A stretch of 64,000 nucleotides of DNA. Origin: Nonomuraea basaltis (GTDB taxonomy: Bacteria > Actinomycetota > Actinomycetes > Streptosporangiales > Streptosporangiaceae). The stretch is taken from NCBI RefSeq assembly GCF_005893125.1, contig NZ_VCJS01000038.1, forward strand, positions 1-64,000, given 5' to 3'. The notes under the pieces were generated by a model that was given only the letters and a program-made list of their open reading frames with translations, made no database searches and was not told the DNA's origin. A program made the translations under genes and the position numbers. Of the stretch, positions 1 to 19,875 are shown one piece after another. Position 1 is the stretch's first letter, and every line of letters begins with the position of its first letter.

Positions 1-1192
1 GAGCGGCGACGGAACGTCGCCGCTCCGCGCGGTCGAGCCCCTTGGCCGACAGCAGGTCGTCCAGTACGCCGAGGCAAGCGAAGGCCGCTTCCACTCCCGC
101 GGGCTCGATCTCGAGCGAAGTCCGCCGTCGCTCCTCCAAGAGCCGGAAATGACGCACTATGTCGGGCCCGTGTCGTCGTGTCGGCGTGCTGACGGCAATC
201 CGCAGACAGGAGTCGAGCACTCGCGACGCGTCATCCCGCCCCAGATGAAGCTCGGCTCCGACGGCGTCGAAATCAGCATGGTCATCGACCGACCACGCGC
301 GCAGCCGTCCGCCGTTCCTGGCCGCGATGAAGCTCAGGACCCGGCCGGGCCCCAGCTCCACGGCGGCACCGACACCGTCGGTGAGCAGGCGGCTCTGCAC
401 GCCGTCCCAGCGCACCGGCCGGACAAGCTGGTCGGCGAGGAGCGCCGCGCCGGCGGCACCACCGGGGTGCGGTCGAGCGTCGACGCCGGAGAGCACGGGA
501 ACCGCGGTCTCGGCGATCGTCACGCCGGCCAGCGCTTCCAGCAGTTCCTCGGCCGCCGGGCGCATCAACGGGCTGTGGAAGGGCCCGCTGACACGGAGGG
601 GGAACACCCGCGCACCACGCGCCTCGAACTCGGCGGCCGCACGCCTCAGGTCCGTGCCGCGGGCAGAGATCGCGACCTGGCGCGGGCCGTCGACGATGGC
701 CGGATAGACCGCGAAACCGTCCTCGGTCCAGTGCCGGCAGACTCGTTCCACTCTGTCCGCGTCCAGATCAAGAACCCACATCATTCCGCCGTCCAGCGCC
801 TCGGCGGCCCTGCTGACCGCCTCGCCCCGGAGCCGGACCAGCCGCACCGCCTCAGCCAGCGGCAGCGCGCCGGCACAGCACAGGGCGGTGTACTCGCCCA
901 GGCTGTGCCCGGCCAGGTGGGTGACCGGCAGGCCAATCTCCTCGCGGAACACCCGGTACAGGGCGACCCCCATCGCCAGGAGAGCGAGCTGCGACTCCAC
1001 CTGCCGATTCAAGCGGTCGCCGGCCGCCGGGTCTTCGCACAGTCCGGCCAGGTCGAGACCGAGCTCGTCCGATGCCTCATTCAGGGTCTCACGAAAAGTG
1101 CCGTACCGGCGGGACCATTTGGCCGCCATTCCAGGATATTGGGAACCCACTCCGGGGAAAAGAAACGCCAACCTCGGCCACGGAATCGACAT
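1..1192 (-). CDS. ACP malonyltransferase (FabD/MAT-like), partial at window edge
   Basis: An open minus-strand frame starts at ATG 1192 with GGAGG about six bases upstream, and runs off the left edge without a stop (397 codons visible). The N-terminus reads LAFLFPGVGSQYPGM, and the nucleophile elbow GHSLGEY is the malonyl/acyl transferase signature. The second catalytic region VSGPFHSPLM carries the expected His. Such enzymes load malonyl or another acyl group onto a carrier protein. The protein continues at least 100 residues beyond the usual end of a FabD domain, so it may carry an extra C-terminal region. It is divergent from the decarboxylase gene and shares a promoter region with it. In vicenistatin-type pathways a related acyltransferase (VinK) moves a beta-amino acyl dipeptide between carriers, so that role is an alternative to malonyl loading. 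Confidence 0.85.
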   Translation of the reverse strand, partial: MSIPWPRLAFLFPGVGSQYPGMAAKWSRRYGTFRETLNEASDELGLDLAGLCEDPAAGDRLNRQVESQLALLAMGVALYRVFREEIGLPVTHLAGHSLGEYTALCCAGALPLAEAVRLVRLRGEAVSRAAEALDGGMMWVLDLDADRVERVCRHWTEDGFAVYPAIVDGPRQVAISARGTDLRRAAAEFEARGARVFPLRVSGPFHSPLMRPAAEELLEALAGVTIAETAVPVLSGVDARPHPGGAAGAALLADQLVRPVRWDGVQSRLLTDGVGAAVELGPGRVLSFIAARNGGRLRAWSVDDHADFDAVGAELHLGRDDASRVLDSCLRIAVSTPTRRHGPDIVRHFRLLEERRRTSLEIEPAGVEAAFACLGVLDDLLSAKGLDRAERRRSVAA

Positions 1193-1516
1193 TCCTCACC
1201 TCCGTGATGAGCTCGTCCGGTCGATTGCCGAGACGGGAGTCAACCACGGCCCACGCCCTCGTTCAACCGGACGTCTCAGCAGTTGAACATCGGAGAATTC
1301 CACATAACGGCCTCGTGACCAGGCACGGTGCCCCGCCGGAGGGGCCGCACTAACCAGGTGAGTGAGCGAAGAACTGTGCAGGAGAGGTCCATTGATGACG
1401 GAACTCGACATCCTGTACTGTGCGCCCCACTGCAATTTCCGCCATCTGCACTCGTAACAGCGGACTTCTTCAACAGGGGCTTCATCAGCAGGTCGAGGAG
1501 AAAGAGAACAATCATC
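1193..1516. other. Divergent intergenic region of the biosynthetic cluster
   Basis: About 320 bases separate the acyltransferase start (1192, minus) from the decarboxylase start (1517, plus). The region holds one StrR-like palindrome, listed separately. I see no clear -35/-10 pair and no convincing small gene. Codon third positions here are not G/C-biased, unlike the neighbouring genes, which supports a non-coding reading even though an open frame extends upstream of 1517. Confidence 0.6.
1261..1288. promoter_or_regulatory. StrR/NovG-like activator binding palindrome
   Basis: The half-sites GTTCAACCG (1261-1269) and CAGTTGAAC (1280-1288) form an inverted repeat resembling the StrR-family consensus GTTCRACTG-N11-CRGTYGAAC. 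The spacer here is 10 rather than 11 bases. It lies 69 bases upstream of the acyltransferase start. A StrR-like gene is in the same cluster at 17.06 kb, so it is the obvious candidate ligand. That link is inference from family knowledge. Confidence 0.6.
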
Positions 1517-3034
1517 GTGACCGCCGCACCCGAATATCCGGCCTGGGCATTCCCGTTCGCTGGAACTCCTGATGGACTCAAAGATCTCCGAACTCTGTGC
1601 GAACTCGCCCTGGACGTGATGTCAGAGGTACGGCACGACCGCTCGGGTCCCGGTCCGGCCGGTGGTTACCACGGCGTGGCCGAGTCGGCCCGGGCGCTGA
1701 TGGCCGGCCCGCTCCTCCCGGAACTCGGCGGAGCGCCCCACGATGTCCTCGCCGACGTCACCCGCGCCTTCGCCGCCGGATCGGTCGACCTCACTCACCC
1801 GGCGGCTCTGGCCCGCATGCAGCCTCCCTCACTGGCTGTCGCGGCGGCGGCTGAGCTTGTCGTGGCCACCCTCAACCAGTCCTTGCACGCCTGGGAGAGC
1901 GGTCCGTTCGCGCTCGAGATCGAGCGCTTCGTCACCGCCGAGCTGGCCACCCTCATCGGCTACGGCTCCGGCGCGGGGGGCACCCTCACCTCGGGCGGCA
2001 GCGTCTCCAACCTGATGGCGATGACCATGGCCCGAGACTCGGTCCTGGCCCGCCGTCTGAGCCGTCGTCCCGGCCAGGAAGGGGTGGCCGGTCTCCACCG
2101 CCGCCCGGTCGTGCTCGCGCAGGAGGCCATCCACTTCTCGATCGGCCGGGCGCTGCGAATCCTCGGAATCGGCGAGGACCAGCTGATCCCGGTCGCCGTC
2201 GACGCCGACGGCCGCACCAGTGCGGCGGATGCCCGCCGGGTGCTGTTCGGCCTGCCCGGCACGGATCTGCCGTTGGCTCTGGTCGCCCTTGCCGGTTCGA
2301 CCGACCTCGGCGTGATCGACCCGCTCCGTGAGCTGGCGGAGGTGGCGCGCGAGCACGATCTCTGGCTGCACGCCGACGCCGCCTATGGAGCCGGCGCGTT
2401 GTTCTCCGAGCGGCTGCGCCCCCTGCTGGACGGCCTCTCGGAGGCCGACTCGGTCACCATGGACCTGCACAAGTTCGGGTGGCTGCCCAGTTCCTCGGCG
2501 ATGCTGCTGGTCAAGTCTCGCGGCGACCTGCAGGACTCCTTCGGCCTGGCGACCACGACCTGTCTGACCTCCGCCGACGACACAGAGCAGGGCTATCACG
2601 GCCTGCAGGGCGAGTCGTTGCAGACGACACGTCGCGCGGACGCTTTCAAGATCCTCGTAGCGCTCCGCTGCCTCGGCCGTGAGCGCTTGAGCGCCATGGT
2701 CGACGCCTGCCATGACCTGGCCATCCACGCAGCGGAACGGATCCGCGAAGAGCCGCGCCTGGAGCTCGTCGCCCACCCTCCTCTCGGTGCGGTCCTTTTC
2801 CGGTACCTCACCGACGATCCCGGCAAGGCCGATGAGGTCAATGGGGCCGCGCGCCGCGAGCTGATGGCCACCGGGCGTCTCCTGCTGGCCCGCACGCACC
2901 TGGTGGACGGCGCAGGCGTCCAGCGGGTCTACCTCAAGCTGCTGTTCCTGAACCCCGAGACAGCGCCCGAGCAGGTCGACGATGTCATCGCGATGTTCCT
3001 GACGACCGCCCGGAGGATCGAGGCGGAGGGCTGA
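1517..3034 (+). CDS. PLP-dependent amino acid decarboxylase (group II)
   Basis: A 505-residue protein, the normal size for group II decarboxylases (glutamate, diaminobutyrate, aromatic amino acids). It shows the PLP-binding HADAAYGAG segment and the Schiff-base lysine in TMDLHKFGWLP. The start is GTG 1517: third-position G/C bias begins there, and the upstream extension of the frame looks non-coding. GAGGAG at 1494-1499 is farther upstream than usual. The next gene begins three bases after the stop and the glutamate mutase genes follow. By analogy with VinO of vicenistatin biosynthesis, a plausible substrate is 3-methylaspartate, free or carrier-bound, giving a methylated beta-amino acid. Sequence alone does not exclude diaminobutyrate, aspartate or other substrates. 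Confidence 0.85.
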   Translation: MTAAPEYPAWAFPFAGTPDGLKDLRTLCELALDVMSEVRHDRSGPGPAGGYHGVAESARALMAGPLLPELGGAPHDVLADVTRAFAAGSVDLTHPAALARMQPPSLAVAAAAELVVATLNQSLHAWESGPFALEIERFVTAELATLIGYGSGAGGTLTSGGSVSNLMAMTMARDSVLARRLSRRPGQEGVAGLHRRPVVLAQEAIHFSIGRALRILGIGEDQLIPVAVDADGRTSAADARRVLFGLPGTDLPLALVALAGSTDLGVIDPLRELAEVAREHDLWLHADAAYGAGALFSERLRPLLDGLSEADSVTMDLHKFGWLPSSSAMLLVKSRGDLQDSFGLATTTCLTSADDTEQGYHGLQGESLQTTRRADAFKILVALRCLGRERLSAMVDACHDLAIHAAERIREEPRLELVAHPPLGAVLFRYLTDDPGKADEVNGAARRELMATGRLLLARTHLVDGAGVQRVYLKLLFLNPETAPEQVDDVIAMFLTTARRIEAEG

Positions 3035-3037
3035 TCC

Positions 3038-4258
3038 TTGGAATCCCCGATGAAGTACGAGGCAGAGGCCTCGGGCCTGCGAATCTCCGCACCCGTGGAC
3101 GGGGTACGCGAGTCGATGCGCCGCCTGCCCGGTGCCTTCGCCGTCCCCCTGACCCTGCTCACCGGCAAGCCCCACGCCGGGCAACGACCGGTTCGCTTCA
3201 CTCCGACCAGCCATCTGATCAACGCGATCTGCTCGACCACCGCCGGCCTCACGATCTCCTGCCTGGCGTTGGCCTCCGGTGGCCTGGCTCTGTTCGCGCT
3301 GCCGGCGGGCTGGGCGGTCACGCTGCACGGCCTCCGAAATCTGCGCATGATGATCTACCACCAGTGCGCGCATAGGAACATGTGGCGCCGGCGGCGCCCC
3401 GACGACCTGCTCGGGCGCGTCATCGCCGCTCTGCTGATCGTCCAGCGCTTCGATGACTACCGCGCCGAGCATGTGGCCGACCACCACGCGCTGCACCACA
3501 TGACCGTCCGGGACCCCACGGTCCGCGCCTTCCTGATCGGGCTGGGACTTCAGCCGAGGATGTCCCGCCGGGAGATGTGGTCCCGCGTGCTCCGGCTGCT
3601 GGCGTCACCCGTGTTCCACGTCAGGTTCCTGACGTCACGGATCCGCTCGCACGTGAAGGGAATGTCACGCGAAGAGCGCGTCTGGACCTTCGCCGGCTAT
3701 GCGACCGTGGCCGGCCTGGCGACCTGGCTCCAGCTTTGGCCGTTCGTCCTGATCGCCTGGATCGTACCGGTGACCGTCCTGTTCCAGGTGAGCAACACCC
3801 TCCGGCTCTGTGTCAAGCACACCTTCCCACTCCCCGGCCAGACCGACCGTCGCGGCCGGGCCTACTTCTGCAGCCTGACGAACGCGATCTTCATCGGCGA
3901 GCCGGCCCCGGATCCCCGCCTGCCAGGCGGGCACCGAGCGCTGGCTTGGCTACGCTGGTGTGCCCGCCTGGCCGTTGTCCACTTCCCCGCCCGCTATCTG
4001 GTGCTGACCGGCGACACCGTCTGCCACGACTTCCACCACCGGCACCCGATGGATCGGCGCTGGGCGGACTACATCTTCGAACGGGAGGCCCGGCTCGCTT
4101 CGCTGACGCCCGGCGATCCACACTACCGGCACGTCTGGGGTCTGATCCCCGCGATCGACGTGGTCTTCGACTCGCTGCGCGCGGCCGATCCAATGGAGTA
4201 CTCACGAGAGCTGGCCGCAGCCGAGCACCATGACGTCTTCGCCGCTTTCGACGACTGA
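3038..4258 (+). CDS. Membrane fatty-acid-desaturase-like diiron enzyme
   Basis: The 406-residue protein carries three histidine clusters typical of integral membrane desaturases and hydroxylases: HQCAH near residue 105, HVADHHALHH near 145, and CHDFHHRH near 330. Hydrophobic stretches lie between them (for example residues 65-95 and 215-255). The start is TTG 3038, well spaced from GGAGGG in the end of the preceding gene; ATG 3050 is an alternative. Family members desaturate, hydroxylate or acetylenate acyl chains, sometimes on a carrier protein (JamB-type). Set between a decarboxylase and the glutamate mutase genes, it more likely tailors the product of this cluster than membrane lipids. The substrate is unknown. 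Confidence 0.8.
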   Translation: MESPMKYEAEASGLRISAPVDGVRESMRRLPGAFAVPLTLLTGKPHAGQRPVRFTPTSHLINAICSTTAGLTISCLALASGGLALFALPAGWAVTLHGLRNLRMMIYHQCAHRNMWRRRRPDDLLGRVIAALLIVQRFDDYRAEHVADHHALHHMTVRDPTVRAFLIGLGLQPRMSRREMWSRVLRLLASPVFHVRFLTSRIRSHVKGMSREERVWTFAGYATVAGLATWLQLWPFVLIAWIVPVTVLFQVSNTLRLCVKHTFPLPGQTDRRGRAYFCSLTNAIFIGEPAPDPRLPGGHRALAWLRWCARLAVVHFPARYLVLTGDTVCHDFHHRHPMDRRWADYIFEREARLASLTPGDPHYRHVWGLIPAIDVVFDSLRAADPMEYSRELAAAEHHDVFAAFDD

Positions 4259-4285
4259 CCCGACGACGAACCCCCGGGAGGATCC

Positions 4286-4741
4286 ATGACCGCCGACGCC
4301 GGAGAGCGCCTGATCATCCTCGGCGTGTCCGAAAGCGACGCGCACGCCGTGGCGAACCAGTTGATCGCGATGCACTTGCGTGAACAGGGCTTCACCGTGA
4401 TCAACCTGGGTGTGTGCACCCCGCTGAGCGACTTCGCCGCCGCCTGCGACCAGTACCCGCACGCGGAAGCCGTGCTCATCGGCAGCCTCAACGGACATGC
4501 CTATCAGGACCTCGCCGAACTGCCGGCGCTGCGGGCGGCGGGGCGGCTACGTTGCCCGCTGGTGGTCGGCGGCAACGTCTCGGTCGGCCAGGACACCACG
4601 AGCGAACAACGCAGGCGGCTCCTGACTCTCGGTATCGATCATCTGCTGACCGATGCCTCACAGATCGTGCCTCTCCTGGACATGCTGCGCTCAGCGCGCG
4701 ACACCCATGCCTCCCCGGCCCATGACGCCCGAATCTGCTAG
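4286..4741 (+). CDS. glmS: Methylaspartate (glutamate) mutase, small B12-binding subunit
   Basis: The 151-residue protein matches the cobalamin-binding S/sigma subunit of glutamate mutase. LGVSESDAHAVANQLI contains the base-off B12 motif (DxHxxG), with the lower-ligand His kept but the Gly replaced by Ala. FTVINLGVCTP and the CPLVVGGNVSVG region follow, as in GlmS. With the E subunit it interconverts L-glutamate and (2S,3S)-3-methylaspartate using adenosylcobalamin. The RBS GGGAGG precedes ATG 4286 by a few bases. The 3' end overlaps the E-subunit gene, so translation is probably coupled. In antibiotic clusters (vicenistatin, friulimicin) this pair supplies 3-methylaspartate rather than fermenting glutamate. 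Confidence 0.92.
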   Translation: MTADAGERLIILGVSESDAHAVANQLIAMHLREQGFTVINLGVCTPLSDFAAACDQYPHAEAVLIGSLNGHAYQDLAELPALRAAGRLRCPLVVGGNVSVGQDTTSEQRRRLLTLGIDHLLTDASQIVPLLDMLRSARDTHASPAHDARIC

Positions 4742-6137
4742 CCCTCTCGACGATCTCGCGCTCTCCCCGCACCTCACGGCCACGCTGCCGCGGTGGGAGC
4801 AGATCATGGCAGAGCTCCGCGAACCCGGCCCGCACATCGTCGACGTCCTGCGGATGGCGGACGCCACCGGACGCCCGGCGGTCCAGCCCCGCTGCGGCGT
4901 CGGTGGCCACCGGGAAATGCTGCGGCTGCTCGAAGAGCTCAGCACCACCGGAGCCGATGTCCTCACCGTCACCATCGATTCGCACACCCGGCTCAGGCAG
5001 TACGCCACCGCGCAACGCCTGTTGTGTGACTCCCCCGGCGACCTGAACGGTTATCCGCTGGTCGCGCACGGCTGGCGGCGTGGCCGCGAACTCCGTGCCC
5101 GTGTCCCGCACCCCCTTCAGGTACGGCACGGCTCGCCGGATGCCCGCGATCTGTTCGCCATCGCCCTGGCCTCCGGCATCACGTCGTTCGAGGGTGGCGG
5201 GATTGACTACAACCTGCCCTATTCCAAGGACATCCCGCTCAGGACCACGCTCGGATCCTGGCGGCGGATAGACGCGGTATGCGGTGTCCTTGCCAAGGAC
5301 GGCGTCCTCGTAGACCGTGAACTGTTCGGGACGCTCAGCGCCGTCCTCATGCCGCCCTCGATCAGCTTGGCGATCACCCTGCTGGAGGCGGCGGCCGCGG
5401 CGCGCGAGGGCGTCAGGTGCGTGTCGCCCGCCTACCCACAGTCCGGGGAGATGCACCAGGACATCGCCGCGCTGCGCGCCATCAGGGTTCTAGGGCAGCG
5501 CTACCTCGGGCCGGACATCGAAGTTTTCCCGGTCCTGCACGAGTTCATGGGCCCCTTTCCCCGCACCCCGCAGTACGCGAACTTCCTGATCATGTACGGC
5601 GGGCTCACCGCCCGGCTCGGAAGGGCGAGCAAGGTGGTCAGCAAGACGGCCAAGGAGGGCTACGGGATCCCGGACGCCGCCGCCAACACCGAGGGCATCC
5701 TCAACACGATCCTGGGGACCAGCGACCTGCTCGACTTCGTCCGAGTGGACGAGGACCGGATAGCCGAAGAGGAGTCCTGGATCCTGCAGGAGGTCGGCGA
5801 GCTCGTGGAGCCGCTGTTCTCCGCCGAGGACCTGCTCGGCGGCGTCGTCGAGGCGTTCCAGACCGGACGGCTCGACATCCCGTTCAGCGCCAGCGTCCAC
5901 GCGCACTCGGACGTGGTGCCCGCGCGAGACCGCGGCGGTGCTGTCCGCTACGCCGACCCCGGGGCGCTGCCGTTCTCGAGCGCCACCCGCTCGCGGCACG
6001 CCCGGCAGCTGTCCGCCCGGGCGGGGGCCGCCAACCGCACCACCAGCCTGATCGAACGGATCACCCGCGACATCAACTACTTCCTCGACAAGGAGAGGAC
6101 TGTGTTGCCCGCAATCGACGAAAGGCCACTGCCGTGA
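4722..6137 (+). CDS. glmE: Methylaspartate (glutamate) mutase, catalytic epsilon subunit
   Basis: About 471 residues, the usual length for GlmE. The substrate-binding segment FEGGGIDYNLPYSKDIPL is well conserved against the family, followed by YPQSGEMHQD and HEFMGPFP-type segments of the TIM barrel. The start is uncertain: ATG 4722 (used here), ATG 4707 and ATG 4653 are in frame, none has a strong RBS, and all overlap the S-subunit gene. The stop overlaps the next gene as GTGA. Partner subunit, tight overlap and order support a working glutamate mutase that makes 3-methylaspartate for this cluster. Confidence 0.92.
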   Translation: MTPESASPLDDLALSPHLTATLPRWEQIMAELREPGPHIVDVLRMADATGRPAVQPRCGVGGHREMLRLLEELSTTGADVLTVTIDSHTRLRQYATAQRLLCDSPGDLNGYPLVAHGWRRGRELRARVPHPLQVRHGSPDARDLFAIALASGITSFEGGGIDYNLPYSKDIPLRTTLGSWRRIDAVCGVLAKDGVLVDRELFGTLSAVLMPPSISLAITLLEAAAAAREGVRCVSPAYPQSGEMHQDIAALRAIRVLGQRYLGPDIEVFPVLHEFMGPFPRTPQYANFLIMYGGLTARLGRASKVVSKTAKEGYGIPDAAANTEGILNTILGTSDLLDFVRVDEDRIAEEESWILQEVGELVEPLFSAEDLLGGVVEAFQTGRLDIPFSASVHAHSDVVPARDRGGAVRYADPGALPFSSATRSRHARQLSARAGAANRTTSLIERITRDINYFLDKERTVLPAIDERPLP

Positions 6138-7522: not shown

Positions 7523-8313
7523 TCCCCACGGTCCGCGACGGTGCCGATCAGGTCCGCGCCGTCGTGGACCAGCAGGGTCGCTGCTCGGCCGACGACCGCT
7601 ACCGCGGCCCGATACGGCGCCGGCAGCGGCGCGTCGATCAGCGAATACGAGTCCGGGCTCCCGAGCACGGCGGGAAGGGCGAGCACCCTCGGCGGTGCGC
7701 CCGAACCCGTCACCTCCACGTGGGCCGGATGGACCGCCAGGCCCTTGCCCACCGCTTTGAGTACGGCTTCCTTCCTGGTCCACCGGACCACGAAGTCGGC
7801 GTAACCGCCGCCTCGCGCGCGAAAGTCCCTGAGCTCGAACTCGGACAGCGACGACTCGAGGTGAGGGCCGACGGATTCGCGAACCGAGGCGTCCTCGACG
7901 TCGACGCCGACGGCGCCCCGCGATGTCACGGCCAGGACGGCCAGCTCTCCCGTGTGGGAAACCGAGATATCCACGTCCGGTTCGACCGGATCCACCACTT
8001 TCGGCTTGCCGTGATCGCCTCCGCAATACCGGCACGTACGGTCGAAGACGAAGCCCGAGGGATCACCACCCCACCGATCGGCCAGCACGAGCCGGGTCAG
8101 CGCCCATGCGGCAACGAAACGACGGCGGTCGTCCACTCCACGCAGTCGCCCTCGGCGCAGCAGATCCCGCTCGTTCAGCAGCACCACCAGTTCTTCCGGT
8201 ACGGCCGCGGCGCGGACGTACCAGACCTCGCAATCGACCTCGGAGTCCGGCACTCCGGCCTCGACGGCGTCAGGGAGCGCCACGGGCTCGCTCCCGATCT
8301 GCCCGCCGATCAC
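7504..8313 (-). CDS. Sfp-type 4'-phosphopantetheinyl transferase
   Basis: The 269-residue protein carries the PPTase signatures VGVDVED (Mg-binding Asp and Glu) and FVVRWTRKEAVLKAVGKGL (W-x-x-KEAxxK), plus a CRYCGGDHGKP segment typical of the Sfp family. The start is GTG 8313, sharing GTGA with the stop of the upstream thioesterase-like gene, so it is co-transcribed with the NRPS operon. It converts apo carrier domains to the holo form. The likely clients here are the two T domains of the NRPS and the free carrier protein. The last gene of the minus-strand operon, it converges on the aminotransferase. Confidence 0.9.
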   Translation of the reverse strand: MIGGQIGSEPVALPDAVEAGVPDSEVDCEVWYVRAAAVPEELVVLLNERDLLRRGRLRGVDDRRRFVAAWALTRLVLADRWGGDPSGFVFDRTCRYCGGDHGKPKVVDPVEPDVDISVSHTGELAVLAVTSRGAVGVDVEDASVRESVGPHLESSLSEFELRDFRARGGGYADFVVRWTRKEAVLKAVGKGLAVHPAHVEVTGSGAPPRVLALPAVLGSPDSYSLIDAPLPAPYRAAVAVVGRAATLLVHDGADLIGTVADRGDHAPSA

Positions 8314-12100: not shown

Positions 12101-14154
12101 GTCCGGAGGGATTCGTGACGGGCCACAACGTCGGCGAGCGCGGCGTGGAGCTCGTCCGTGTCGAGCGGACCCTTGAAACGCGCACCATAGGCGAGGTTGT
12201 AGCCGAGGTCCGCCTCGTTCAGGCGGTTCAGGTACCAGAGACGTCGCTGCGCGTAGGAAGGGCGCGATGCGTGCCCGGCGTGATCGCCCGAGTCCCGGTG
12301 CGGGGCGGCTTCGTCCGTGTCCCCGATCATCTCGCAGAGCTCTCCGACGGTCGCGGCTTCGAAGACGTGCCGGACCGGGAAATCGACGCCCAGCGACGCG
12401 CGAAGGTGACCCACCAGGCGTGCCGCGTGCAGCGAAGTACCACCGAGAGCGATGAAATCGTCGCCGATCCCGACTCGGCCGATCCCGAGCACCTTGGCCA
12501 GCAGGCCGCACACCGCTTCTTCGACGGCGGTCCGCGGCGCGCGGTGTGCGTGATCGTCGAACGCGGGCGCGCGGCGTGCGTGGTCACCCAGGGCGCCGGA
12601 GCCCGGATCCGGGAGCGCCTGGCGATCCACCTTGCCGTTCGGGGTCAGTGGCAGTCGATCGACGACCTGGAACGCCTCGGGCACCAGGTGCCGCGGAACT
12701 ACGGCCAGCAGTCCTCGGGCAAGCCTGGAGGCCTGCAAGTTCTCGCCCACCACGTAGGCCACGAGGTGCGGGATTCCCTCAGCGTCCGGCCGCGCCACCA
12801 CCGCCGCCTGGTGCACACCAGGCAGGCGCTCCAGCGCGGCCTCGACCTCCCCCGGCTCCACCCGGAAGCCGCGGATCTTGACCTGCGCATCCGTCCGGCC
12901 GCGATACTCCAGAACGCCGTCGGCGTTACGGACCGCCAAATCCCCCGTTCGGTACATCCGCCGTCCGCCTGCGGCGAATGGGTCCGCGACGAAGCGCTCC
13001 GCCGTCAGTTCCGGGCGGTTCAGGTACCCTCGTGCCACCTGAAGCCCGGACAGATAGAGCTCACCGACTGTCCCGGAGGGGGCCATGCGCAGCCGCTCGT
13101 CCAGGATGTGCGCGTCGACATCCGGGAAGGTGACACCGATCGGCGCAGTGCCCGTCCCGGTCCCGTCGACCTCCGCGGACGTGGCCCACACCGTCGCCTC
13201 GGTAGGCCCGTACAGGTTCGTCACCCGCCGCGCCCGGGCGGCGAGTTCGGCACCGAGCGCGGCCGGGAGAGCCTCGCCGCCGACGAGGACCTCGAGACCG
13301 TCGACGACGCTGGGACACTCCGCAAGCAGCTCGCGCCACAGGGTCGGGGTCCCCTGCATGATGGTGGCGCCGGATCCGGCCATCAGCTCGCCGAGAGCGC
13401 TCGGGTGGAGGGCCTGGTCCGCGGTCGCGATGACCAGGCGGGTGCCGCGCAGCAATGGCAGAAGGTACTCCGGCACCGACATGTCGAAGCCGAAGGTCGT
13501 GGCCGACACCAGCCGGTCCGCGGGCTTGAGCGGGAAGCGCCGTTCCATGGCGGTGAGGAAGGCGGCCAGCGCCCCGTGAGTGATCATGACGCCCTTGGGG
13601 CGTCCGGTCGAGCCTGAGGTGTAGATGACGTACGCGAGGTCGTCCGGCGTCAGGGCATCGAGAGCGCCGGCCACGCCGGCCCGGCTCGGCGCCCCCATGC
13701 CGGTCCGCACCGCCGACCCCTCCTCCTGCGACGCGGCAGCCACCACGACACCGTCATCGAGGACCAAGCCGGCCGCATCGACGCGGACCGTCGGCAGCCC
13801 TGCCGGAACCGCCACCTGCGTGTCCGCTCCCAGCACCACGACGGAGGGCCGAGCGTCCTCGATCATCCACGCGATCCGCTCGGACGGGTAGGCCGGGTCG
13901 ATGGGCAGGTAGGCCGCCCCGGCCTGCCAAGCCCCCAGTATCGCGGTCACCGCGCCGATCCCCCGCGGCGCCACGACGGCCACGATCGACTCCCGTCCGG
14001 CCCCATGCCGCGCCAGCGCGCCGGCCACTGCGGCGGCCCTGGAATCCAACTCCCGGTGCGATACGGCCACCTGGCCGCACACCACGACCGACTCCGGGCC
14101 GGAGCAAGCGACACGCGTCGCCAGCAGTTTCGCGGCCACGCTCCGGGATCCCAT
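9127..14154 (-). CDS. Two-module NRPS, domain order A-T-C-A-T
   Basis: 1,675 residues. A1 (about 1-505) has YTSGSTGRPKG and YRTGD motifs; T1 (about 550-620) has LGGTSLHAAR; C (about 640-1075) has an intact HHIGFDG; A2 (about 1090-1590) has TSGSTGRPKG; T2 (about 1600-1672) has LGGNSLNAAR. There is no epimerase, methylation or terminal thioesterase domain. Specificity residues aligned by eye: A1 D-M-P-Q-L-G-L-V-W, close to glycine codes; A2 D-G-T-E-V-G-L-V-A, which I cannot assign. The start is ATG 14154, two bases after the carrier-protein stop. Beginning with an A domain marks it as an initiating dimodule; chain release or transfer must be in trans, perhaps by the TubC-docking/TE protein at 18.1-19.9 kb. 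Confidence 0.93.
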   Translation of the reverse strand: MGSRSVAAKLLATRVACSGPESVVVCGQVAVSHRELDSRAAAVAGALARHGAGRESIVAVVAPRGIGAVTAILGAWQAGAAYLPIDPAYPSERIAWMIEDARPSVVVLGADTQVAVPAGLPTVRVDAAGLVLDDGVVVAAASQEEGSAVRTGMGAPSRAGVAGALDALTPDDLAYVIYTSGSTGRPKGVMITHGALAAFLTAMERRFPLKPADRLVSATTFGFDMSVPEYLLPLLRGTRLVIATADQALHPSALGELMAGSGATIMQGTPTLWRELLAECPSVVDGLEVLVGGEALPAALGAELAARARRVTNLYGPTEATVWATSAEVDGTGTGTAPIGVTFPDVDAHILDERLRMAPSGTVGELYLSGLQVARGYLNRPELTAERFVADPFAAGGRRMYRTGDLAVRNADGVLEYRGRTDAQVKIRGFRVEPGEVEAALERLPGVHQAAVVARPDAEGIPHLVAYVVGENLQASRLARGLLAVVPRHLVPEAFQVVDRLPLTPNGKVDRQALPDPGSGALGDHARRAPAFDDHAHRAPRTAVEEAVCGLLAKVLGIGRVGIGDDFIALGGTSLHAARLVGHLRASLGVDFPVRHVFEAATVGELCEMIGDTDEAAPHRDSGDHAGHASRPSYAQRRLWYLNRLNEADLGYNLAYGARFKGPLDTDELHAALADVVARHESLRTLFVQEEGVLRRRVLDAAACLPCPAAEQASPEDVQRVFDETAAHRFDLEREIPVRYRLLRIAPQDHALLVVVHHIGFDGWSKTLFVDDLATAYEARSRGAEPGGKPLSAGYSDYVQWQESMLGDPADPDSRYARELAYWRGALEGMPDELALPNDRARPARGSGRGGKVEGELDPLSHRALAALAREHRASVFMVLQAALGALLTRLGSGTALPIGCPVAGRTERAFDEVIGMFVNTLVLPTRTDGDPTFRALLSRIRASDLEAYAHQELPFDLLVEAVNPPRSAARNPLFQVMLALESEPEPPLRLPGLSGEPLRAGLDFSRFDLTVIATERRDSDEEPAGVGLALEYSADLFDRETAELMLRRFARLLRSAVQAPDRRLSELDVMDEAELGQVLGDFAHGARKSLATDASALVESAVTANGPHPAVVCGEVVISYAEFGARAEEVAEALTRHGAGPEALVAIAMPRVAGAVVAMLGAWKAGAAYVPIDAGYPAERIRWLLQDARPAVVVLEAGSPVAVPEGVPVVRVDEAGRTAGTDSVRGPAAGPGDGGGRAPDRAAYVIYTSGSTGRPKGVVVSHRALANYLQWASETYPSMRGRVPVTFSFGFDGAVTQLWAPLTAGGTVELVDVPSWLVDEPDPGAERPTFLELTPSQFPLLGDPDDPRWPTRDLVLGGEALHGAALAEWRRDHPHVDLTNLYGPTEVTVACTFHRIAAGEAIGADAVPIGRPVWNVRLYVLDEAQRPVPIGVVGELYAAGAQLARGYLNRPELTRERFVPDPFAADGSRMYRTGDLARWTASGVVEYVGRVDDQVKIRGFRVEPGEVEAALERLPGVRQAAVTARPDPRGSLRLEAHLVGDSVPPVVLSRALGAILPRHMVPDVFVFADRLPLTSNGKVDRQALPVSVPEAEGVEGDSGREPRSGAEKAVCGLFAEILGVDHVRMDDDFFSLGGNSLNAARLVGRVRTLLGARIGLQDLFEAPTVAMLAERCEV

Positions 14155-14156
14155 CG

Positions 14157-14405
14157 TTACAGGAACCTCTCAGCGATACGGTCCAGGGTGCGGAAGTCGT
14201 CGATCGCCAGTGAGCCGACGTCGATCGGTTTGCCGGAGAGTTCTTCCAACAGGCCAATGAACTCCAGGAACGCCAATGACTCGATGAGCCGGGTCTCGAT
14301 CAGGTCGGTGCCCGGAGGAACGTCGCCTTCCAGGTCGGGGTTCTTCGACCGGATCCAGGCGACGATCTCGTCCACCCCGGCCTCCTTGACTCCCCTGAGA
14401 TCCAT
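14157..14405 (-). CDS. Free-standing acyl/peptidyl carrier protein
   Basis: An 82-residue acidic helical protein with the carrier-protein core LIETRLIESLAFLEFIGLL. Ser in ESL stands where the phosphopantetheine arm attaches (DSL in most carriers). The start is ATG 14405. The gene follows the ligase by about a dozen bases and precedes the NRPS by two. Its position directly after an aminoacyl-tRNA-synthetase-like ligase is that of the dedicated carrier charged by amino acid:[carrier protein] ligases. It is therefore probably aminoacylated in trans and then donates the amino acid to a downstream enzyme. Confidence 0.88.
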   Translation of the reverse strand: MDLRGVKEAGVDEIVAWIRSKNPDLEGDVPPGTDLIETRLIESLAFLEFIGLLEELSGKPIDVGSLAIDDFRTLDRIAERFL

Positions 14406-14416
14406 GCCCTGGTCTC

Positions 14417-15253
14417 CTATCCGATCGAACCGTGGACAACGGCAAGGGCGCGCTCGGCCCCGCCGTGTGTTCGGATCAAGGTGTGGACCCACCGTTCCAC
14501 ACCGAAGGCGAGACAGCTGCTGTAGGCCGGAGCACCGTCGTGCTCGATGCCCAGCCGCTCGCCGAAGAAGTTGCGGTGGCGGTTGACCGAGCCGATCGCG
14601 GTGCCGTCCGTGGCCACGAACTCGATCTTGACCGGATCCATCCGGCTGAGCAGCGCACGTGAGCCTTCGTCCAGGTAGAAGGGGTCCGTGGCCGGCAGCT
14701 CATCGAGTTCGATGCCGAGCCCTGTGGCCAGGTCGCGCACCTGGTCTCCCGCCTTGCGCAGATGTTCCACCGCGCCTTCCTTGCTTCCGACGTAGAGAAC
14801 CTCCCGCATGTGGAATGCCCTGAGGCGGCGTAGGCCGTCGTAGACCTTCTCGTTGCGGTAGCAGCTGCCGATCGCGGTGAGCAACCGTGACGTCTGGAGC
14901 TTCTGTTGCCGGAACATCATGAGCAGCCCGTAGCAGGTGGCCGTCGGCAGGAGGCAGCCTGTCGGCTCCAAAGCGTCCTCGGGCGTGGGTGCCTGCTGCT
15001 CCTTTCCGGCCAGCCGTGCAACCACCTCCTCCGCGTACCCGGATACCGGGAGCGCGAGGTGGGGGAAGTTGGCGAAGAAGTCGAGCCGGGTCAGCAGCTC
15101 GGCGGGGAGCATCGCCGGGCCGACGATCGGCCGTGCGCCCAGTTGTTCGGCGATGCGGAGGAAACGGGCGTCCAGAGCACCGAAGATCTCGGCCTCAGCG
15201 GAGTCGAGCACCACGACTCCCGGCGCGAGGAACATGGTCATGGGTGCTCCCAT
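14417..15253 (-). CDS. Amino acid:[carrier protein] ligase (SerRS-like class II fold)
   Basis: The 278-residue protein lacks a tRNA-binding arm and matches the catalytic core of atypical seryl-tRNA synthetases. Motif 2 is visible as SCYRNEKVYDGLRRLRAFH, and motif 3 as AFGVERWVHTL. Three candidate zinc ligands are in the places known for archaeal-type SerRS: Cys in PTATCYG, Glu in HMREVLY and Cys in SSCLAFG. Such truncated homologues adenylate a small amino acid and load it on a carrier protein instead of tRNA. The adjacent carrier gene (14157-14405) supports this. The start ATG 15253 overlaps the oxygenase stop as TGATG; an internal ATG 15241 is possible. Confidence 0.85.
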   Translation of the reverse strand: MGAPMTMFLAPGVVVLDSAEAEIFGALDARFLRIAEQLGARPIVGPAMLPAELLTRLDFFANFPHLALPVSGYAEEVVARLAGKEQQAPTPEDALEPTGCLLPTATCYGLLMMFRQQKLQTSRLLTAIGSCYRNEKVYDGLRRLRAFHMREVLYVGSKEGAVEHLRKAGDQVRDLATGLGIELDELPATDPFYLDEGSRALLSRMDPVKIEFVATDGTAIGSVNRHRNFFGERLGIEHDGAPAYSSCLAFGVERWVHTLIRTHGGAERALAVVHGSIG

Positions 15254-16119
15254 CAGTCGAACAGGCCGATACGCCGGTAGAAGGAGACGGTTCGTTCGGT
15301 GATGCGGTCGTGCACGGCTTGCCGGGCAGGGTCGGCCAGCACGGTGGCGCGGAACCGTGACGGCGAGGCGATTCCGGCGTCGCGGTAGGCGTCCACGCTG
15401 TACAACATCTGGATGATGAGATCGATGTAGCGACGCAGATAACCGGCGACGTCCCGCACGGCGTCGGCCGAATGACCGGCCTTGACCTGATTGAAGAGCG
15501 CAGAGACCAACTGGCCGCCGAAGGCGATGTGCCGGGACTCATCGCGGTGGTGGATGCGGTTCACCTCCCGGACGGTCTCCGGGAGGCCAGGATCCGCAGC
15601 CATCCTGGCATTGAAGAAATCACCGATCTGCTCGAAGATCAATATCTGGCTGAACACGATGAAGTTGTTCAGCTCCGGCGAGCGCTCGGCGGCGGGGAAG
15701 ACCATGCGCCGGTCTGGATAGATGCGACCGCCGTACCGGAGACAGAATTCGGCGAAGAACCACATGTGCTCGTTCTCCTCGCCGATGAAGTGGTGGAAAT
15801 AGGGCGTCGGGATCTCGTAGCCGGGGGTGTGGATGCGGCGCATCACCTCGATGAGCAGCTCCCTGATCCCGTGGGCGATCAGGCTGTAGAGGTTGACGCT
15901 CTCCCAGCGAGAGAGCTCGACCAGTCGCTCCGGCGGGATGTCCCGCTCCACCGCGGTGCCGTGAATCGAGAGCAGTTCCCTGCTCATCCACAGCGACGCG
16001 GGCTTGATCTCGTCCGGCCACTGGAAGGCGCGATAGGGGTTGTAGTAGTCCTCGACCGAGGCCTCCGTGAGCCTGTTGACGGCCTTGGAGAACTCCTGTG
16101 TCCACTCAAGCGCCGACAT
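15253..16119 (-). CDS. AurF/CmlI-like diiron oxygenase (possible N-oxygenase)
   Basis: A 288-residue, largely helical protein. Candidate diiron ligands lie in GEENEHMWFFAEF (E-x-x-H) and HHRDESRHIAF (D-E-x-x-H), the arrangement of the AurF/CmlI family, which oxidises aryl or alkyl amines to hydroxylamine, nitroso or nitro groups; some relatives hydroxylate carbon. GGGAGG stands five bases before ATG 16119; ATG 16122 is adjacent and in frame. It is the first gene of the minus-strand operon that continues through the ligase, carrier, NRPS, thioesterase-like protein and PPTase. The substrate could be an amino acid tethered to the carrier protein. The N-oxygenase role is inference from family resemblance. 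Confidence 0.72.
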   Translation of the reverse strand: MSALEWTQEFSKAVNRLTEASVEDYYNPYRAFQWPDEIKPASLWMSRELLSIHGTAVERDIPPERLVELSRWESVNLYSLIAHGIRELLIEVMRRIHTPGYEIPTPYFHHFIGEENEHMWFFAEFCLRYGGRIYPDRRMVFPAAERSPELNNFIVFSQILIFEQIGDFFNARMAADPGLPETVREVNRIHHRDESRHIAFGGQLVSALFNQVKAGHSADAVRDVAGYLRRYIDLIIQMLYSVDAYRDAGIASPSRFRATVLADPARQAVHDRITERTVSFYRRIGLFD

Positions 16120-16388
16120 CATGTCCTCCCGTCCCCGGCACGAGGCAGAATTCGAAGTCGCTGCCCCCACTGGCGTTCACATCGATCGGCATCGTGGTCC
16201 GCCGGCGTCGACGGCCTCGAACACCCGGTTTCATGGGCTCGGGAAGCCTGGTTCCCCGAATCACCCACCCCACTGAATCCACACCGACTCGCAATCCGCA
16301 GTCATGAAATCTCTTTCGGTGCGCTCCACCACCGACCGCGGACTTTCCGGAGATCGGTGTATGGGGACTTTCGCCGCGGTATTCAACA

Positions 16389-16768: not shown

Positions 16769-16846
16769 GAGGAGGCCCAGGTCGGGAGGACAGCACTTTC
16801 CCGCATAGAGGAGGCCCAGGTCAGGAGGACAGCGCTTTCCCGCATA
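16769..16846. repeat. Two tandem 39-bp direct repeats
   Basis: Units 16769-16807 and 16808-16846 begin GAGGAGGCCCAGGTC and end CTTTCCCGCATA. They are head-to-tail and differ at two positions. They are about 220 bases upstream of the StrR-like gene. Recent duplication or a doubled binding site are both possible. Confidence 0.75.
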
Positions 16847-17061
16847 CCGCGAACATACCGCCCGACCTTATATTCAGCCCGGATCGCGCACGCATTAAGG
16901 GAGACGGCTGTGCATGCTCCGCCAATACATCCATGCCGGTGCTCTGCGGACCACGCTCCTTCATCGCGGCCCGACGACGTCAACGCGACGGCCCGCCCAC
17001 GTGGAGACAACGCCATGATCATGGCGATCCGCGATCGCCGTAACTATCGGGAGGAAGCTTC

Positions 17062-18033
17062 GTGGAGAGAAGCGTTTCAGAGTTGACGAACCGAGGGAGC
17101 GGTTTTGTCGCTGACGATATCGTACGCGTGATGCTCGATGATTTGACGGAGGCGGATTCACCACGCTGTCAGGGAGTCGATCTCGACCATGTTCACGCAC
17201 TCGCCGAGGTGGAGAATCCGCTTCCGCCCATACTCGTGCATTTCGACACCATGCGCGTCATCGACGGAATGCACCGTCTGACTGCCGCACGGTTGCTCGG
17301 CCGCTCCGACATCGAGGTGCAGTTCTTCCACGGAGACCCCGACGAGGCATTCCGGTTCGGGGTTCAGGCGAACGTCTCACATGGTTTACCGCTGTGCTTG
17401 GCCGATCGGAAGGCGGCCGCGGCACGCATCATCTGGTCGCACCCGCATCTCTCCGACCGGGCGATCGCGTTGTCGGCAGGATTGGCGGCGGCGACCGTGG
17501 CGTCGATGCGCAAGCAGAACGACAGGTTTGGGGAAGCCACGGCCAGGACCGGCGCAGACGGTAAAGTCCGGCCGCTGAACGCCGCGAAGGGGCGGCTGGT
17601 CGCCAGTGAGGTGCTTGCCGAGCACCCGGATGCGACGCTCCGGGAGATCGCGCAAGCGGCGGGGATCTCGATCGCGACCGCGCAGGACGTGCGCCGGCGC
17701 GTCCTCGCGGGCGAAGACCCCGTGCCCGAGCGATTGAGGTCCGCCGAAGAGGATGTGTCTCAGCACAAGGCATCGGCGAACGGCCCCGCCGGCACCGCGG
17801 AGCGGATCGACCTCACACGGGTGATCGACATCCTGCGGCGGGATCCGTCACTTCGCTATTCCGAATCCGGCCGCATGCTGCTCAGGTGGCTGGACTCCAG
17901 GACCGTGACGACCACGCAGTGGGCAGAGGTCGCGGATAACATTCCGCCGCACTGCCTGGCCTCCATCTCCAAGGTGGCGAGGGAATGTGCTCGGACATGG
18001 TCGGAGATCGCCGAGATGGTCGATGACGTCTGA
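17062..18033 (+). CDS. StrR/NovG-family cluster activator, ParB-like, with a TTA codon
   Basis: The 323-residue protein has the ParB/RepB-type N-terminus of StrR-like activators: HVHALAEVENPLPPILVH, TMRVIDGMHRLTAAR and ANVSHGLPLCLADRKAAA. A helix-turn-helix region follows (HPHLSDRAIALSAGLAAATV), with a second at about 190-215 (TLREIAQAAGISIATAQDV). The family activates streptomycin, novobiocin and related clusters through GTTCRAC-type palindromes, two of which are in this cluster. The start is GTG 17062 with GAGGAAG six bases upstream. Leu in SHGLPL is encoded by TTA (17386-17388), a rare codon in such genomes read by the bldA tRNA, so translation is probably development-dependent. It converges with the docking/TE gene. 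Confidence 0.9.
   Translation: MERSVSELTNRGSGFVADDIVRVMLDDLTEADSPRCQGVDLDHVHALAEVENPLPPILVHFDTMRVIDGMHRLTAARLLGRSDIEVQFFHGDPDEAFRFGVQANVSHGLPLCLADRKAAAARIIWSHPHLSDRAIALSAGLAAATVASMRKQNDRFGEATARTGADGKVRPLNAAKGRLVASEVLAEHPDATLREIAQAAGISIATAQDVRRRVLAGEDPVPERLRSAEEDVSQHKASANGPAGTAERIDLTRVIDILRRDPSLRYSESGRMLLRWLDSRTVTTTQWAEVADNIPPHCLASISKVARECARTWSEIAEMVDDV
17386..17388 (+). promoter_or_regulatory. bldA-type TTA codon in the regulator
   Basis: In the regulator frame the codons are GGT-TTA-CCG (Gly-Leu-Pro). TTA is rare in high-G+C actinomycetes and often marks pathway-specific activators under control of the leucyl tRNA bldA. The codon is plainly visible; dependence on bldA is established for Streptomyces and is inferred here. 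Confidence 0.75.
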
Positions 18034-18111
18034 CCGTATGTGATGGCTCTCCGGCGCACCCGGCTCCGTCCCACTCAGAAGACCGGCGTGATCTCAGGTC
18101 GACGACGGAGA

Positions 18112-19875
18112 TCAGCGGTCCCTTGAGGGAGCTGTACCCTCCTCGGCTCCGTCTCTGCTCCAGGACTTCATCCGGGTGTTGAGATGCGCGCCGATGCGCG
18201 CCATGGCTTCCGGGCCGGCCATGTCCAGGTGGCCGCAGTCCAGCTCAACCCGATCGACGCCGCGCACGTGGCCGTCCCAGCGCCGCGGATCAACCACGAT
18301 CCGGCTGGGCTGCCGGGACGTGCTGGCGAAGAACGTCAGCTCACCGTCGAAGACTCCTGGCACATGGTCCAGCAGCAGACGGAAATGGTTCACCGTGGAC
18401 GCCATGAGCCTCTCGATCGTCGCGAGGCCGAGTTCGGGGAAGGTCGGGTTGTGGATTTTGATCTGACGCTTCAGGTCTTCGGCGGTAGCGTCCGCGGGCA
18501 ACTCGGCCATCGCCAGGTCGGCCGCTTCGTCGCTGCCGAGCAGGGTGCTGAGCGCCTCCCGGACGAGCTCCTCCTCGCTGACCTCCCCGAGCGCCGGGAG
18601 CGGTGCCGCGTCCATGACGGCCAGCACGGCCACCTCCTCTCCTGACTCCTGGAGCAGCACCGCCAACCGGTGTGCGATGAGACCACCGAACGACCAGGAG
18701 AGGAGGTGATACGGGCCGTGCGGTTGGATTCTGCGGATTTCGCGAAGATGGCCGTCCGCGATCTCCTCGACGCTCGACGCGAGGTATCCGGGGGACCGCA
18801 GGGACGCCGTCTGCAGGCCGTACACGGGGTGGTCCTGGGCCAGGTGGCCGAGCAGCATCACGTAGCACCAGCTCAGCCCGAGCGCCGGGTGAACGCAGAA
18901 CAGCGGCGGCTCGGTGCCGGCCGGCCTCAGAGGGAGAACGACTCCGAACAGGTCGTGCGCGTCGCGGGCAGCGCTACGCTCCGCCTCCTCAGAAGGCGTC
19001 TTGGAGCCGGGACCGCCCAACCCGGATGGTGAGCCGCCCGGGCCAACGGGAGCAGCCGCTCCTGACGTCAGCGTCGCAAGCGACCGTTCGGGATCCCCGA
19101 GCATCTCCGGAACCAGCATGCTGATCTTCACCGCCAGCTCGCGGCAAAAATCCTCGCCGACCTCCTCGCTGCCCCGCGCCACCTCCAGCCCGATTCGTCC
19201 GGGCTCGTCCACCACGCTCAGAGTGACCGCGTTGCCCCCGCTGAGGCCGGCGTCAGGCCCCTCGGCACCCACGTAGTCGAAGAATCCGTCCACCACCGGA
19301 TCCTCGTGGATATTTCTCCGCTCGGCGGAGGTGATCTGGAAGCGAATCTGTCCGAGGTATTCCTGGATGGTCTGTTCACTGTCGGGAGCCACTCGGATCA
19401 GCTCGAGATTGACCGGTGGACCGGCCGTCGAGGACGCTCCGGCATCTGCCCGCACCTCAACCGGAAATCCCACCACCGATTCGGGACGACCACCGATGTC
19501 CCGCAGGGCAAGAGCATAAGCAGCGAGGTAGAACAGCGGCGGCGCAAGCGCGTTCTCCTCGCAGAACCTCCGGACCGCTGAAGCCACGTCAGCGCCGAGT
19601 TCCAGGCGGACGCTTCGGAAGTCTCCCGCTTCGTGGACATCCTCCAGGTGAATCGGCGCAGCCGACCCACCGGGCACTTGAGCCGGATCGACGTCAGCGG
19701 ACAGAGCCCGCATGATGGCATCCTTCTGCTCCGCGACCCGCGCCAGCAGCTCCGGTCCCACCACACCCCGGCGAGCCTCCATCCGGAGGTTCCCGTCTTC
19801 GACCCGGAGCCGCACGCCCAGCCGGCGCAGGCTTGTCGTCAGCTCGCGTACCTCATCCGCGATCCTCGAATGCAT
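18112..19875 (-). CDS. TubC-docking / half-condensation / thioesterase protein
   Basis: 587 residues from ATG 19875, which has AGAGGAG upstream and where G/C third-position bias begins; the frame extends to ATG 20007, but the extra 44 residues look non-coding. Residues 1-58 form a TubC-type N-terminal docking domain (LRRLGVRLRVEDGNLRMEA). Residues about 75-260 resemble only the C-terminal lobe of a condensation domain (VVGFPVEVR and after), with no HHxxxDG. Residues about 310-575 are an NRPS-type thioesterase with LLSWSFGG (Ser), an Asp in VMDAAP and a His in DCGHLD. It looks like a docking-C-A-T-TE termination module with its middle removed. It may dock to an NRPS or PKS and release the product. 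Confidence 0.8.
   Translation of the reverse strand: MHSRIADEVRELTTSLRRLGVRLRVEDGNLRMEARRGVVGPELLARVAEQKDAIMRALSADVDPAQVPGGSAAPIHLEDVHEAGDFRSVRLELGADVASAVRRFCEENALAPPLFYLAAYALALRDIGGRPESVVGFPVEVRADAGASSTAGPPVNLELIRVAPDSEQTIQEYLGQIRFQITSAERRNIHEDPVVDGFFDYVGAEGPDAGLSGGNAVTLSVVDEPGRIGLEVARGSEEVGEDFCRELAVKISMLVPEMLGDPERSLATLTSGAAAPVGPGGSPSGLGGPGSKTPSEEAERSAARDAHDLFGVVLPLRPAGTEPPLFCVHPALGLSWCYVMLLGHLAQDHPVYGLQTASLRSPGYLASSVEEIADGHLREIRRIQPHGPYHLLSWSFGGLIAHRLAVLLQESGEEVAVLAVMDAAPLPALGEVSEEELVREALSTLLGSDEAADLAMAELPADATAEDLKRQIKIHNPTFPELGLATIERLMASTVNHFRLLLDHVPGVFDGELTFFASTSRQPSRIVVDPRRWDGHVRGVDRVELDCGHLDMAGPEAMARIGAHLNTRMKSWSRDGAEEGTAPSRDR

What the first reader, a model, noticed from the sequence alone, without database searches (positions are those of the whole stretch)
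1..19875. Uncommon biosynthetic cluster combining glutamate mutase, PLP decarboxylase, carrier-protein amino acid ligase, AurF-like oxygenase and a short NRPS
Each part is recognisable, but I know no described cluster with this set. 3-Methylaspartate (GlmS/GlmE) could be decarboxylated to a methylated beta-amino acid as in vicenistatin. A second amino acid is charged on a free carrier by a SerRS-like ligase and may be N-oxygenated by the diiron enzyme. A dimodular NRPS with a glycine-like first A domain and a membrane desaturase add further chemistry. The product could carry an N-O, N-N or unsaturated group. The combination itself is read from the sequence; the chemistry is inference.
Basis: partly seen in the sequence, partly recalled or inferred. 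Interest (0 to 1): 0.88.

Follow-up and report, generated by a model that had tools for sequence, protein, structure and literature searches.

The report
Three-module natural-product gene cluster
An actinobacterium carries a gene cluster that joins a known kit for oxidising an amino acid's nitrogen to a second, barely described kit that reshapes glutamate, so it probably makes an unknown peptide-like compound with an unusual nitrogen-oxygen group.

Summary
The genes are there, plus a class III aminotransferase, a PPTase, a Cys-type thioesterase and a FabD-like acyltransferase cut by the contig end at base 1. The set is made of modules. (1) AurF / amino-acid:carrier-protein ligase / carrier protein matches the published glycine-nitronate cassette (enteromycin type). 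Of 80 related loci, 58 have an adjacent methyltransferase and 11 a nitronate monooxygenase, matching the two known fates; 11 have neither. Five of these 11 (Streptomyces) form one supported clade with the window. (2) Decarboxylase, membrane desaturase, GlmS, GlmE, aminotransferase is a portable operon: the same five genes in the same order occur in three Streptomyces genomes with no AurF cassette in the stretch read. (3) A short A-T-C-A-T NRPS with a glycine-like first A domain. Three Streptomyces genomes hold module 1 and the desaturase-GlmS-GlmE core of module 2 in one region; a fourth has desaturase and AurF genes 13 kb apart. So the pairing is neither accidental nor unique. The vicenistatin analogy is weak: a vicenistatin-like locus lies elsewhere in this genome. 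The product cannot be predicted and the left part is missing. Verdict: new variant of known kinds; a possible third nitronate fate is the interesting part.

The parts
2..1192 (-). Acyltransferase, FabD/trans-AT-like, with GHSLGE motif; cut by the contig end
   Evidence: PF00698, TIGR00128 below cut-off, PDB FabD and DisD hits, motif
1328..3034 (+). PLP decarboxylase; true start uncertain, somewhere in 1328-1676
   Evidence: PF00282; DABA-decarboxylase profile below cut-off; PLP lysine motif HK
3050..4258 (+). Membrane desaturase/hydroxylase-like protein
   Evidence: PF00487; weak likeness to GntB arginine hydroxylase profile, below cut-off; His clusters
4286..4741 (+). Glutamate mutase S subunit (DxH kept, the Gly of DxHxxG is Ala)
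   Evidence: PF02310; sequence
4722..6137 (+). Glutamate mutase E subunit
   Evidence: PF06368
6134..7522 (+). Class III aminotransferase, overlaps GlmE by 4 bases
   Evidence: PF00202; NF004718 739 bits, over cut-off
7504..8313 (-). Phosphopantetheinyl transferase
   Evidence: PF01648; 48-52% homologues follow the AurF cassette in related loci
8310..9122 (-). Thioesterase-like protein with Cys in place of Ser (GYCGG)
   Evidence: PF00975 below cut-off; motif
9127..14154 (-). NRPS A-T-C-A-T, first A domain glycine-like, second unassigned
   Evidence: Pfam domains, motifs
14157..14405 (-). Free-standing carrier protein
   Evidence: No Pfam match; position, serine motif and homologues in related loci
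14417..15241 (-). Amino-acid:carrier-protein ligase (SerRS-like)
   Evidence: NF005479 below cut-off; PDB 3mey
15253..16122 (-). AurF-family diiron N-oxygenase
   Evidence: PF11583; conserved Glu/His positions
17062..18033 (+). Regulator with HTH; ParB/StrR-like by my reading only
   Evidence: PF13412 weak
18112..19875 (-). TubC_N docking domain, partial condensation domain, thioesterase
   Evidence: Pfam

Best explanation
One biosynthetic gene cluster, cut at its left side by the contig end and built from three modules. (a) 14157-16122: the ligase loads glycine (inferred) on the free carrier protein, which the PPTase activates; the AurF enzyme oxidises its nitrogen to a nitronate/nitro group or oxime while it is bound. 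No methyltransferase or nitronate monooxygenase of the known cassettes lies on this contig, so the N-oxidised acyl unit is probably handed on as such. (b) 1328-7522: glutamate mutase makes 3-methylaspartate (established chemistry); desaturase-like enzyme, decarboxylase and aminotransferase turn it into an unsaturated or hydroxylated, decarboxylated amine or beta-amino acid (order and product inferred). (c) The NRPS adds glycine and one other residue, and thioesterases release the product. The edge acyltransferase suggests polyketide modules on another contig. Shown: gene content, module borders, conservation, absence of the two known follow-up enzymes. Inferred: every substrate and the product.
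For: Gene content. AurF with ligase and/or carrier beside it in 89 of 90 other loci (the 91st locus there, L009, is the window's own). Neighbours of 80 loci: 58 methyltransferase, 11 monooxygenase, 11 neither; window clade 100/99. No follow-up enzyme found on C347, C132, C77, C140 (best E 0.06) or, at E up to 1e-3, in six relatives. Five-gene operon in the same order in G866, G709, G848; in G848 GlmE and aminotransferase read as one 952-aa frame. AurF cassette and desaturase-GlmS-GlmE in one region in G323 and G556 and L021; desaturase and AurF genes 13 kb apart in G558.
Against: The modules also occur apart: the operon without an AurF cassette in the stretch read (G866, G709, G848), and the AurF clade without the desaturase (G557, G559). 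The relatives with both have LysW-type genes that I did not see in the window, and there the aminotransferase is another one (29-32%). Two Acidobacteriota loci (L049, L093) also lack both follow-up enzymes, so absence alone is not special to this clade. Several profile matches are below their curated cut-offs.
Confidence: 0.6

Rival explanations
1. Two neighbouring clusters: the plus-strand operon (1.3-7.5 kb) and the minus-strand AurF/NRPS set serve different products.
For: The halves run towards each other and meet at 7.5 kb; each half occurs without the other elsewhere.
Against: They share a region in G323, G556 and L021, in different orders, and desaturase and AurF genes are 13 kb apart in G558. 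Desaturase in 3 of 5 genomes reached through the AurF clade against 16 of 390 other sampled Streptomyces (Fisher p 0.0009, relatedness ignored).
Confidence: 0.2
2. Vicenistatin-like: 3-methylaspartate is loaded on a carrier, decarboxylated there to 3-aminoisobutyrate and passed by the acyltransferase to a macrolactam polyketide synthase.
For: GlmS, GlmE and a PLP decarboxylase together with an acyltransferase; pathway as in passages of PMC11284099.
Against: Acyltransferase matches PF00698 only, not VinK_C; no stand-alone adenylation enzyme; in G866, G709 and G848 the operon lies beside ATP-grasp proteins. The vicenistatin-like locus of this genome is C77/C140.
Confidence: 0.1
3. The ligase and AurF enzyme use another amino acid than glycine, for example the operon's own product, giving an N-hydroxylated unit.
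For: The window clade is set apart by a long branch (0.66) and by SLIAH for SLNVH or close variants in the 27 rows viewed.
Against: Its ligases are closest to those of the monooxygenase-type loci (49-55% for six of them against 38-42% for most methyltransferase-type ones).
Confidence: 0.1

Closest known systems
Glycine-derived nitronate cassette (enteromycin carboxamide, He & Ryan 2021, cited and described in PMC9967187; akazaoxime BGC, PMC9967187, passages)
   Same: AurF-family diiron oxygenase acting on carrier-bound glycine; ligase and free carrier beside it (the latter recalled for the published cassette)
   Different: No nitronate O-methyltransferase and no nitronate monooxygenase found on the contig; separate AurF clade
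Streptomyces clusters with LysW-type carrier (L020/G556, L021/G555, G323)
   Same: AurF-ligase-carrier-PPTase at 78, 60, 62-67, 48-52% identity, and desaturase-GlmS-GlmE; decarboxylase in the region in G323 and G556
   Different: They have LysW-type genes; I saw no counterpart of the window's aminotransferase, acyltransferase or docking-TE protein beside their cassettes, and NRPS likeness is only 35-37%
Five-gene operon in G866, G709, G848 (Streptomyces)
   Same: Decarboxylase-desaturase-GlmS-GlmE-aminotransferase, same order, 58-75% identity
   Different: No AurF cassette within about 20 kb; HypE, HypF, isochorismatase-like and two ATP-grasp proteins instead
Vicenistatin pathway (PMC11284099, passages)
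   Same: Glutamate mutase and a PLP decarboxylase
   Different: No VinN-, VinK- or VinM-type protein seen in the window; extra desaturase and aminotransferase
Althiomycin Alb2/Alb3 (PMC3445576, passages)
   Same: AurF-like enzyme proposed to make an oxime on an assembly line
   Different: No ligase or free carrier in its gene table; has an O-methyltransferase

Membership tests
Glycine-nitronate cassette | AurF-family diiron oxygenase | tested here: met
   PF11583 over cut-off; conserved Glu/His columns in 20 sequences; metal binding itself not tested
Glycine-nitronate cassette | Amino-acid:carrier-protein ligase and free carrier beside it | tested here: met
   Ligase; carrier by position and homology only
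Glycine-nitronate cassette | Substrate is glycine | not testable with these tools
   Inferred from relatives
Glycine-nitronate cassette | Follow-up nitronate O-methyltransferase | tested here: not met
   None found on C347 with two cassette-type queries, best E 0.08 in the window; whole genome not searched
Glycine-nitronate cassette | Follow-up nitronate monooxygenase | tested here: not met
   None found on C347 with two queries, best E 0.16 in the window; whole genome not searched
Vicenistatin-type beta-amino acid starter pathway | Glutamate mutase S and E | tested here: met
Vicenistatin-type beta-amino acid starter pathway | VinK-type acyltransferase | tested here: not met
   Window acyltransferase gives PF00698 only; C140 protein gives VinK_C
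Vicenistatin-type beta-amino acid starter pathway | Adenylation enzyme for 3-methylaspartate (VinN) | tested here: inconclusive
   No stand-alone A enzyme among the genes of 1-20 kb; second NRPS A domain unassigned
Vicenistatin-type beta-amino acid starter pathway | Decarboxylase orthologous to VinO | not tested
   No VinO sequence at hand; best profiles, below cut-off, are DABA and aspartate-1-decarboxylases

The most novel reading that the evidence does not exclude
The window and its Streptomyces relatives define a third fate of the glycine-derived nitronate: neither O-methylated nor denitrified, the carrier-bound nitroacetyl or oximinoacetyl unit (or a nitrile oxide made from it) is built directly into a peptide. 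There it is coupled to a new building block made from 3-methylaspartate by a membrane desaturase and a decarboxylase, perhaps a 2-methyl-3-aminoacrylate unit like the aminoacrylate half of enteromycin (that structure is recalled).
Probability: 0.3. Interest if true: 0.75.

Novelty: new variant of a known kind. Interest (0 to 1): 0.5.

Why it matters
It separates a recognisable, published cassette from what is not explained: an AurF clade with no known follow-up enzyme beside it, and a portable glutamate-mutase/membrane-desaturase unit (desaturase in 18 of 392 sampled Streptomyces genomes; GlmS and GlmE beside it in 19 of 20 loci read) for which I found no described product. Both can be tested with purified enzymes, and the second gives a genome-mining handle for a probably new amino acid building block.

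Tried and rejected
Azoxy/valanimycin reading (SerRS-like plus AurF-like): considered, set aside because the ligase best fits a carrier-protein ligase and a carrier-like protein sits beside it. Lipothrenin LitN (outline and passages of PMC10616846): AurF-like, but its gene table shows no such ligase. Fragin HamC (passages), Dob3 (passages) and althiomycin Alb2 (passages): AurF relatives in other gene settings.

Missing left part: a DNA search with window 1-160 found no end-to-end overlap with another contig. Candidate partner C132: a PKS/NRPS contig with an aminomalonyl-ACP-like set (3HCDH and acyl-CoA dehydrogenase by Pfam; a carrier and a serine-like A domain by my reading), no GHSxGE acyltransferase motif in its three KS proteins (a partial PF00698 match there), and an orientation that would fit the edge acyltransferase. 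Apart from C615 (334-aa frame), the window's is the only PF00698 frame under 700 aa in the own genome, but C542 also has an altered motif (GHGIGE), the VinK_C protein of C140 escapes PF00698, and nothing proves the join. No other match to the edge acyltransferase at E 1e-60 in 393 other class genomes (the tool scored the best 4 candidates of each).

Profile search of the AurF family against PDB: no match. No specificity could be assigned to the second A domain. No structure prediction or fold search was run. Fisher tests ignore relatedness.

Rows dropped or partial: one search kept 80 of 181 confirmed relatives; the tree used these 80 plus the window; alignment views used 27 of 81 and 20. L010 and L032 are the same genome by coordinates, so one search counts it twice. 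Of the 18 Streptomyces hits, 15 were fetched anew, G323 and G367 were held already, and G708 has the coordinates of G556 and was counted as it. Regions of G562, G870 and G701 are cut by contig ends. The transketolase and AONS queries held no data (wrong slice), so nothing is concluded from them. In G555 the decarboxylase gene lies at the end of a different contig (C40) from the AurF and desaturase genes (C21).
Full report
What is there. The window is bases 1-64000 of contig C347 (79,484 bases) in a 14.3-Mb, 670-contig assembly with 8% contamination. Gene calling and profile searches give, from the left: an acyltransferase (minus, cut by the contig end); PLP decarboxylase, membrane desaturase-like protein, GlmS, GlmE and class III aminotransferase (all plus; gaps 15, 27, -20 and -4 bases); on the minus strand PPTase, Cys thioesterase-like protein, NRPS A-T-C-A-T, carrier protein, amino-acid:carrier-protein ligase and AurF-family oxygenase; then a regulator (plus) and a docking/partial-condensation/thioesterase protein (minus). 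From about 20.3 kb to 29 kb the scanned genes are of other kinds. The family is probably Streptosporangiaceae: G084, listed as same family, gives a match at the same contig position (9164) as the Sphaerimonospora mesophila record L032; this is inference.

Module 1, the N-oxidation cassette. A scan of genome contigs with the AurF protein matched 231 stretches, 181 of them relatives, and kept the best 80. In these 80 and ten further loci, ligase and/or carrier homologues lie beside the AurF gene in 89 of 90; L038 is the exception. Neighbour clustering and a maximum-likelihood tree sort the 80: 58 have a TIGR00027/LCM-type methyltransferase within 5 kb, 11 a nitronate-monooxygenase family protein, 11 neither. 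Family names were checked on one representative of each (in NCBIfam the monooxygenase's best model is FabK, below cut-off). [quoted passage not shown] I did not see that paper; that its cassette holds this ligase and carrier is recalled. The two neighbour classes match the two branches in its title.

The third class. The window and L020-L024 (77-78% identical AurF) form one clade (100/99) with neither enzyme, sister (95/77) to a group of eight of which seven are monooxygenase type and the eighth, L026, is cut by a contig end. In the 27 rows viewed, all six clade members read SLIAH where the others read SLNVH or close variants. Two methyltransferase-type queries, a second methyltransferase and two monooxygenase queries found nothing convincing on C347, C132, C77 or C140 (best E 0.06) and nothing at E up to 1e-3 in six relatives' regions; L022 ends about 1.2 kb after its AurF gene, and L021, L023 and L024 reach about 10 kb each side. 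Results against: the Acidobacteriota loci L049 and L093 also lack both; L026, L038, L067 and L091 lack both but are short or cut near the gene; a DUF574-like methyltransferase (name recalled) lies in all five Streptomyces loci of the clade, not in the first 30 kb of the window.

Module 2, the glutamate-mutase operon. The desaturase-like protein is uncommon: 3 of 393 other class genomes, 18 of 392 Streptomyces. In 20 loci read (the 18, plus G539 and L021) GlmS and GlmE lie beside it in 19; G925 is the exception. A decarboxylase homologue (47-59%) is in the fetched region in 8 of 20 (G866, G709, G848, G853, G902, G323, G539, G556), and ferredoxin and reductase genes in 6 (G323, G539, G556, G853, G902, L021). 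G866, G709 and G848 carry the exact window order decarboxylase-desaturase-GlmS-GlmE-aminotransferase (58-59, 60-63, 68-72, 61-63 and 73-75% identity) with no AurF cassette within about 20 kb; in G848 GlmE and aminotransferase read as one 952-aa frame. So this is a portable unit. In those three clusters it follows ATP-grasp proteins.

Do the modules belong together? G323 and G556 (the genome of L020) hold both in one region, with a LysW-type carrier gene, and so does L021. In G558 desaturase and AurF genes start 13 kb apart; in G555 6.7 kb. G557 and G559 have the AurF clade without the desaturase; G539 has the operon and only a 53% AurF relative elsewhere; G367 has no AurF match at 1e-20. Desaturase in 3 of 5 genomes reached through the AurF clade against 16 of 390 other sampled Streptomyces gives p 0.0009, but these genomes are related. 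One cluster is most likely; two neighbours remain a live rival.

Module 3 and the edge. I read A1 as DMPQLGLVW, close to the recalled glycine code, and A2 as DGTEVGLVA, unassigned; the condensation motif and both carrier serines are present. The acyltransferase at the edge suggests polyketide modules on another contig; C132 is a candidate by orientation and need, without proof.

The vicenistatin analogy. The review PMC11284099 (passages) describes VinN loading, on-carrier decarboxylation by VinO, then VinM and VinK. The window has the mutase and a decarboxylase only. The same genome has a second GlmE split between C77 and C140, next to a second GlmS, a VinK_C acyltransferase, PKS genes, and P450-, glycosyltransferase-, hydrolase-, carrier- and adenylation-like genes that I named by eye; that is the vicenistatin-like locus.

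Novelty. The modules are known kinds or have relatives in public genomes; the exact set with this NRPS was not seen elsewhere in what I fetched. Literature searches listed no paper that describes the combination, in an open-access library only.

Noticed in passing
L159-L160 (G866), L161-L162 (G709), L163-L164 (G848): Upstream of the five-gene operon lie isochorismatase-like, HypE (TIGR02124, over cut-off; ends PRLC), HypF (TIGR00143, over cut-off), two ATP-grasp proteins and an MFS transporter (profiles for G866, homologues at 62-93% in the other two). I saw no HypC/HypD by eye. HypE/HypF in a biosynthetic operon could make a cyano group for a natural product.
   Followed up: partly
L004, L006 (own genome C77 end, C140 start): A second GlmS/GlmE with a VinK_C acyltransferase and PKS genes, split between two contigs: a vicenistatin-like macrolactam locus.
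   Followed up: partly
L120, L131 (own genome C132): PKS/NRPS contig with 3HCDH, carrier, acyl-CoA dehydrogenase and serine-like A domain (aminomalonyl-ACP-like), an aminotransferase-like domain in a PKS protein and no GHSxGE acyltransferase motif.
   Followed up: partly
L020-L024; L104-L105 and L141 (G323): Streptomyces clusters that combine LysW-type carrier genes, an alpha-oxoamine-synthase-like gene (by eye) and, in G323 and L024, sulfate-activation-like genes (by eye) with the AurF cassette; product unknown to me.
   Followed up: no
window 18112-19875: TubC_N docking domain fused to about 100 residues of a condensation domain and a thioesterase: an odd architecture.
   Followed up: no
window 24305-24901 (minus) and 24096-25319 (plus): Rfam Sernc389 antisense RNA match (113.6 bits) overlapping, on the other strand, a TnpB/OrfB_IS605-like gene.
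   Followed up: no
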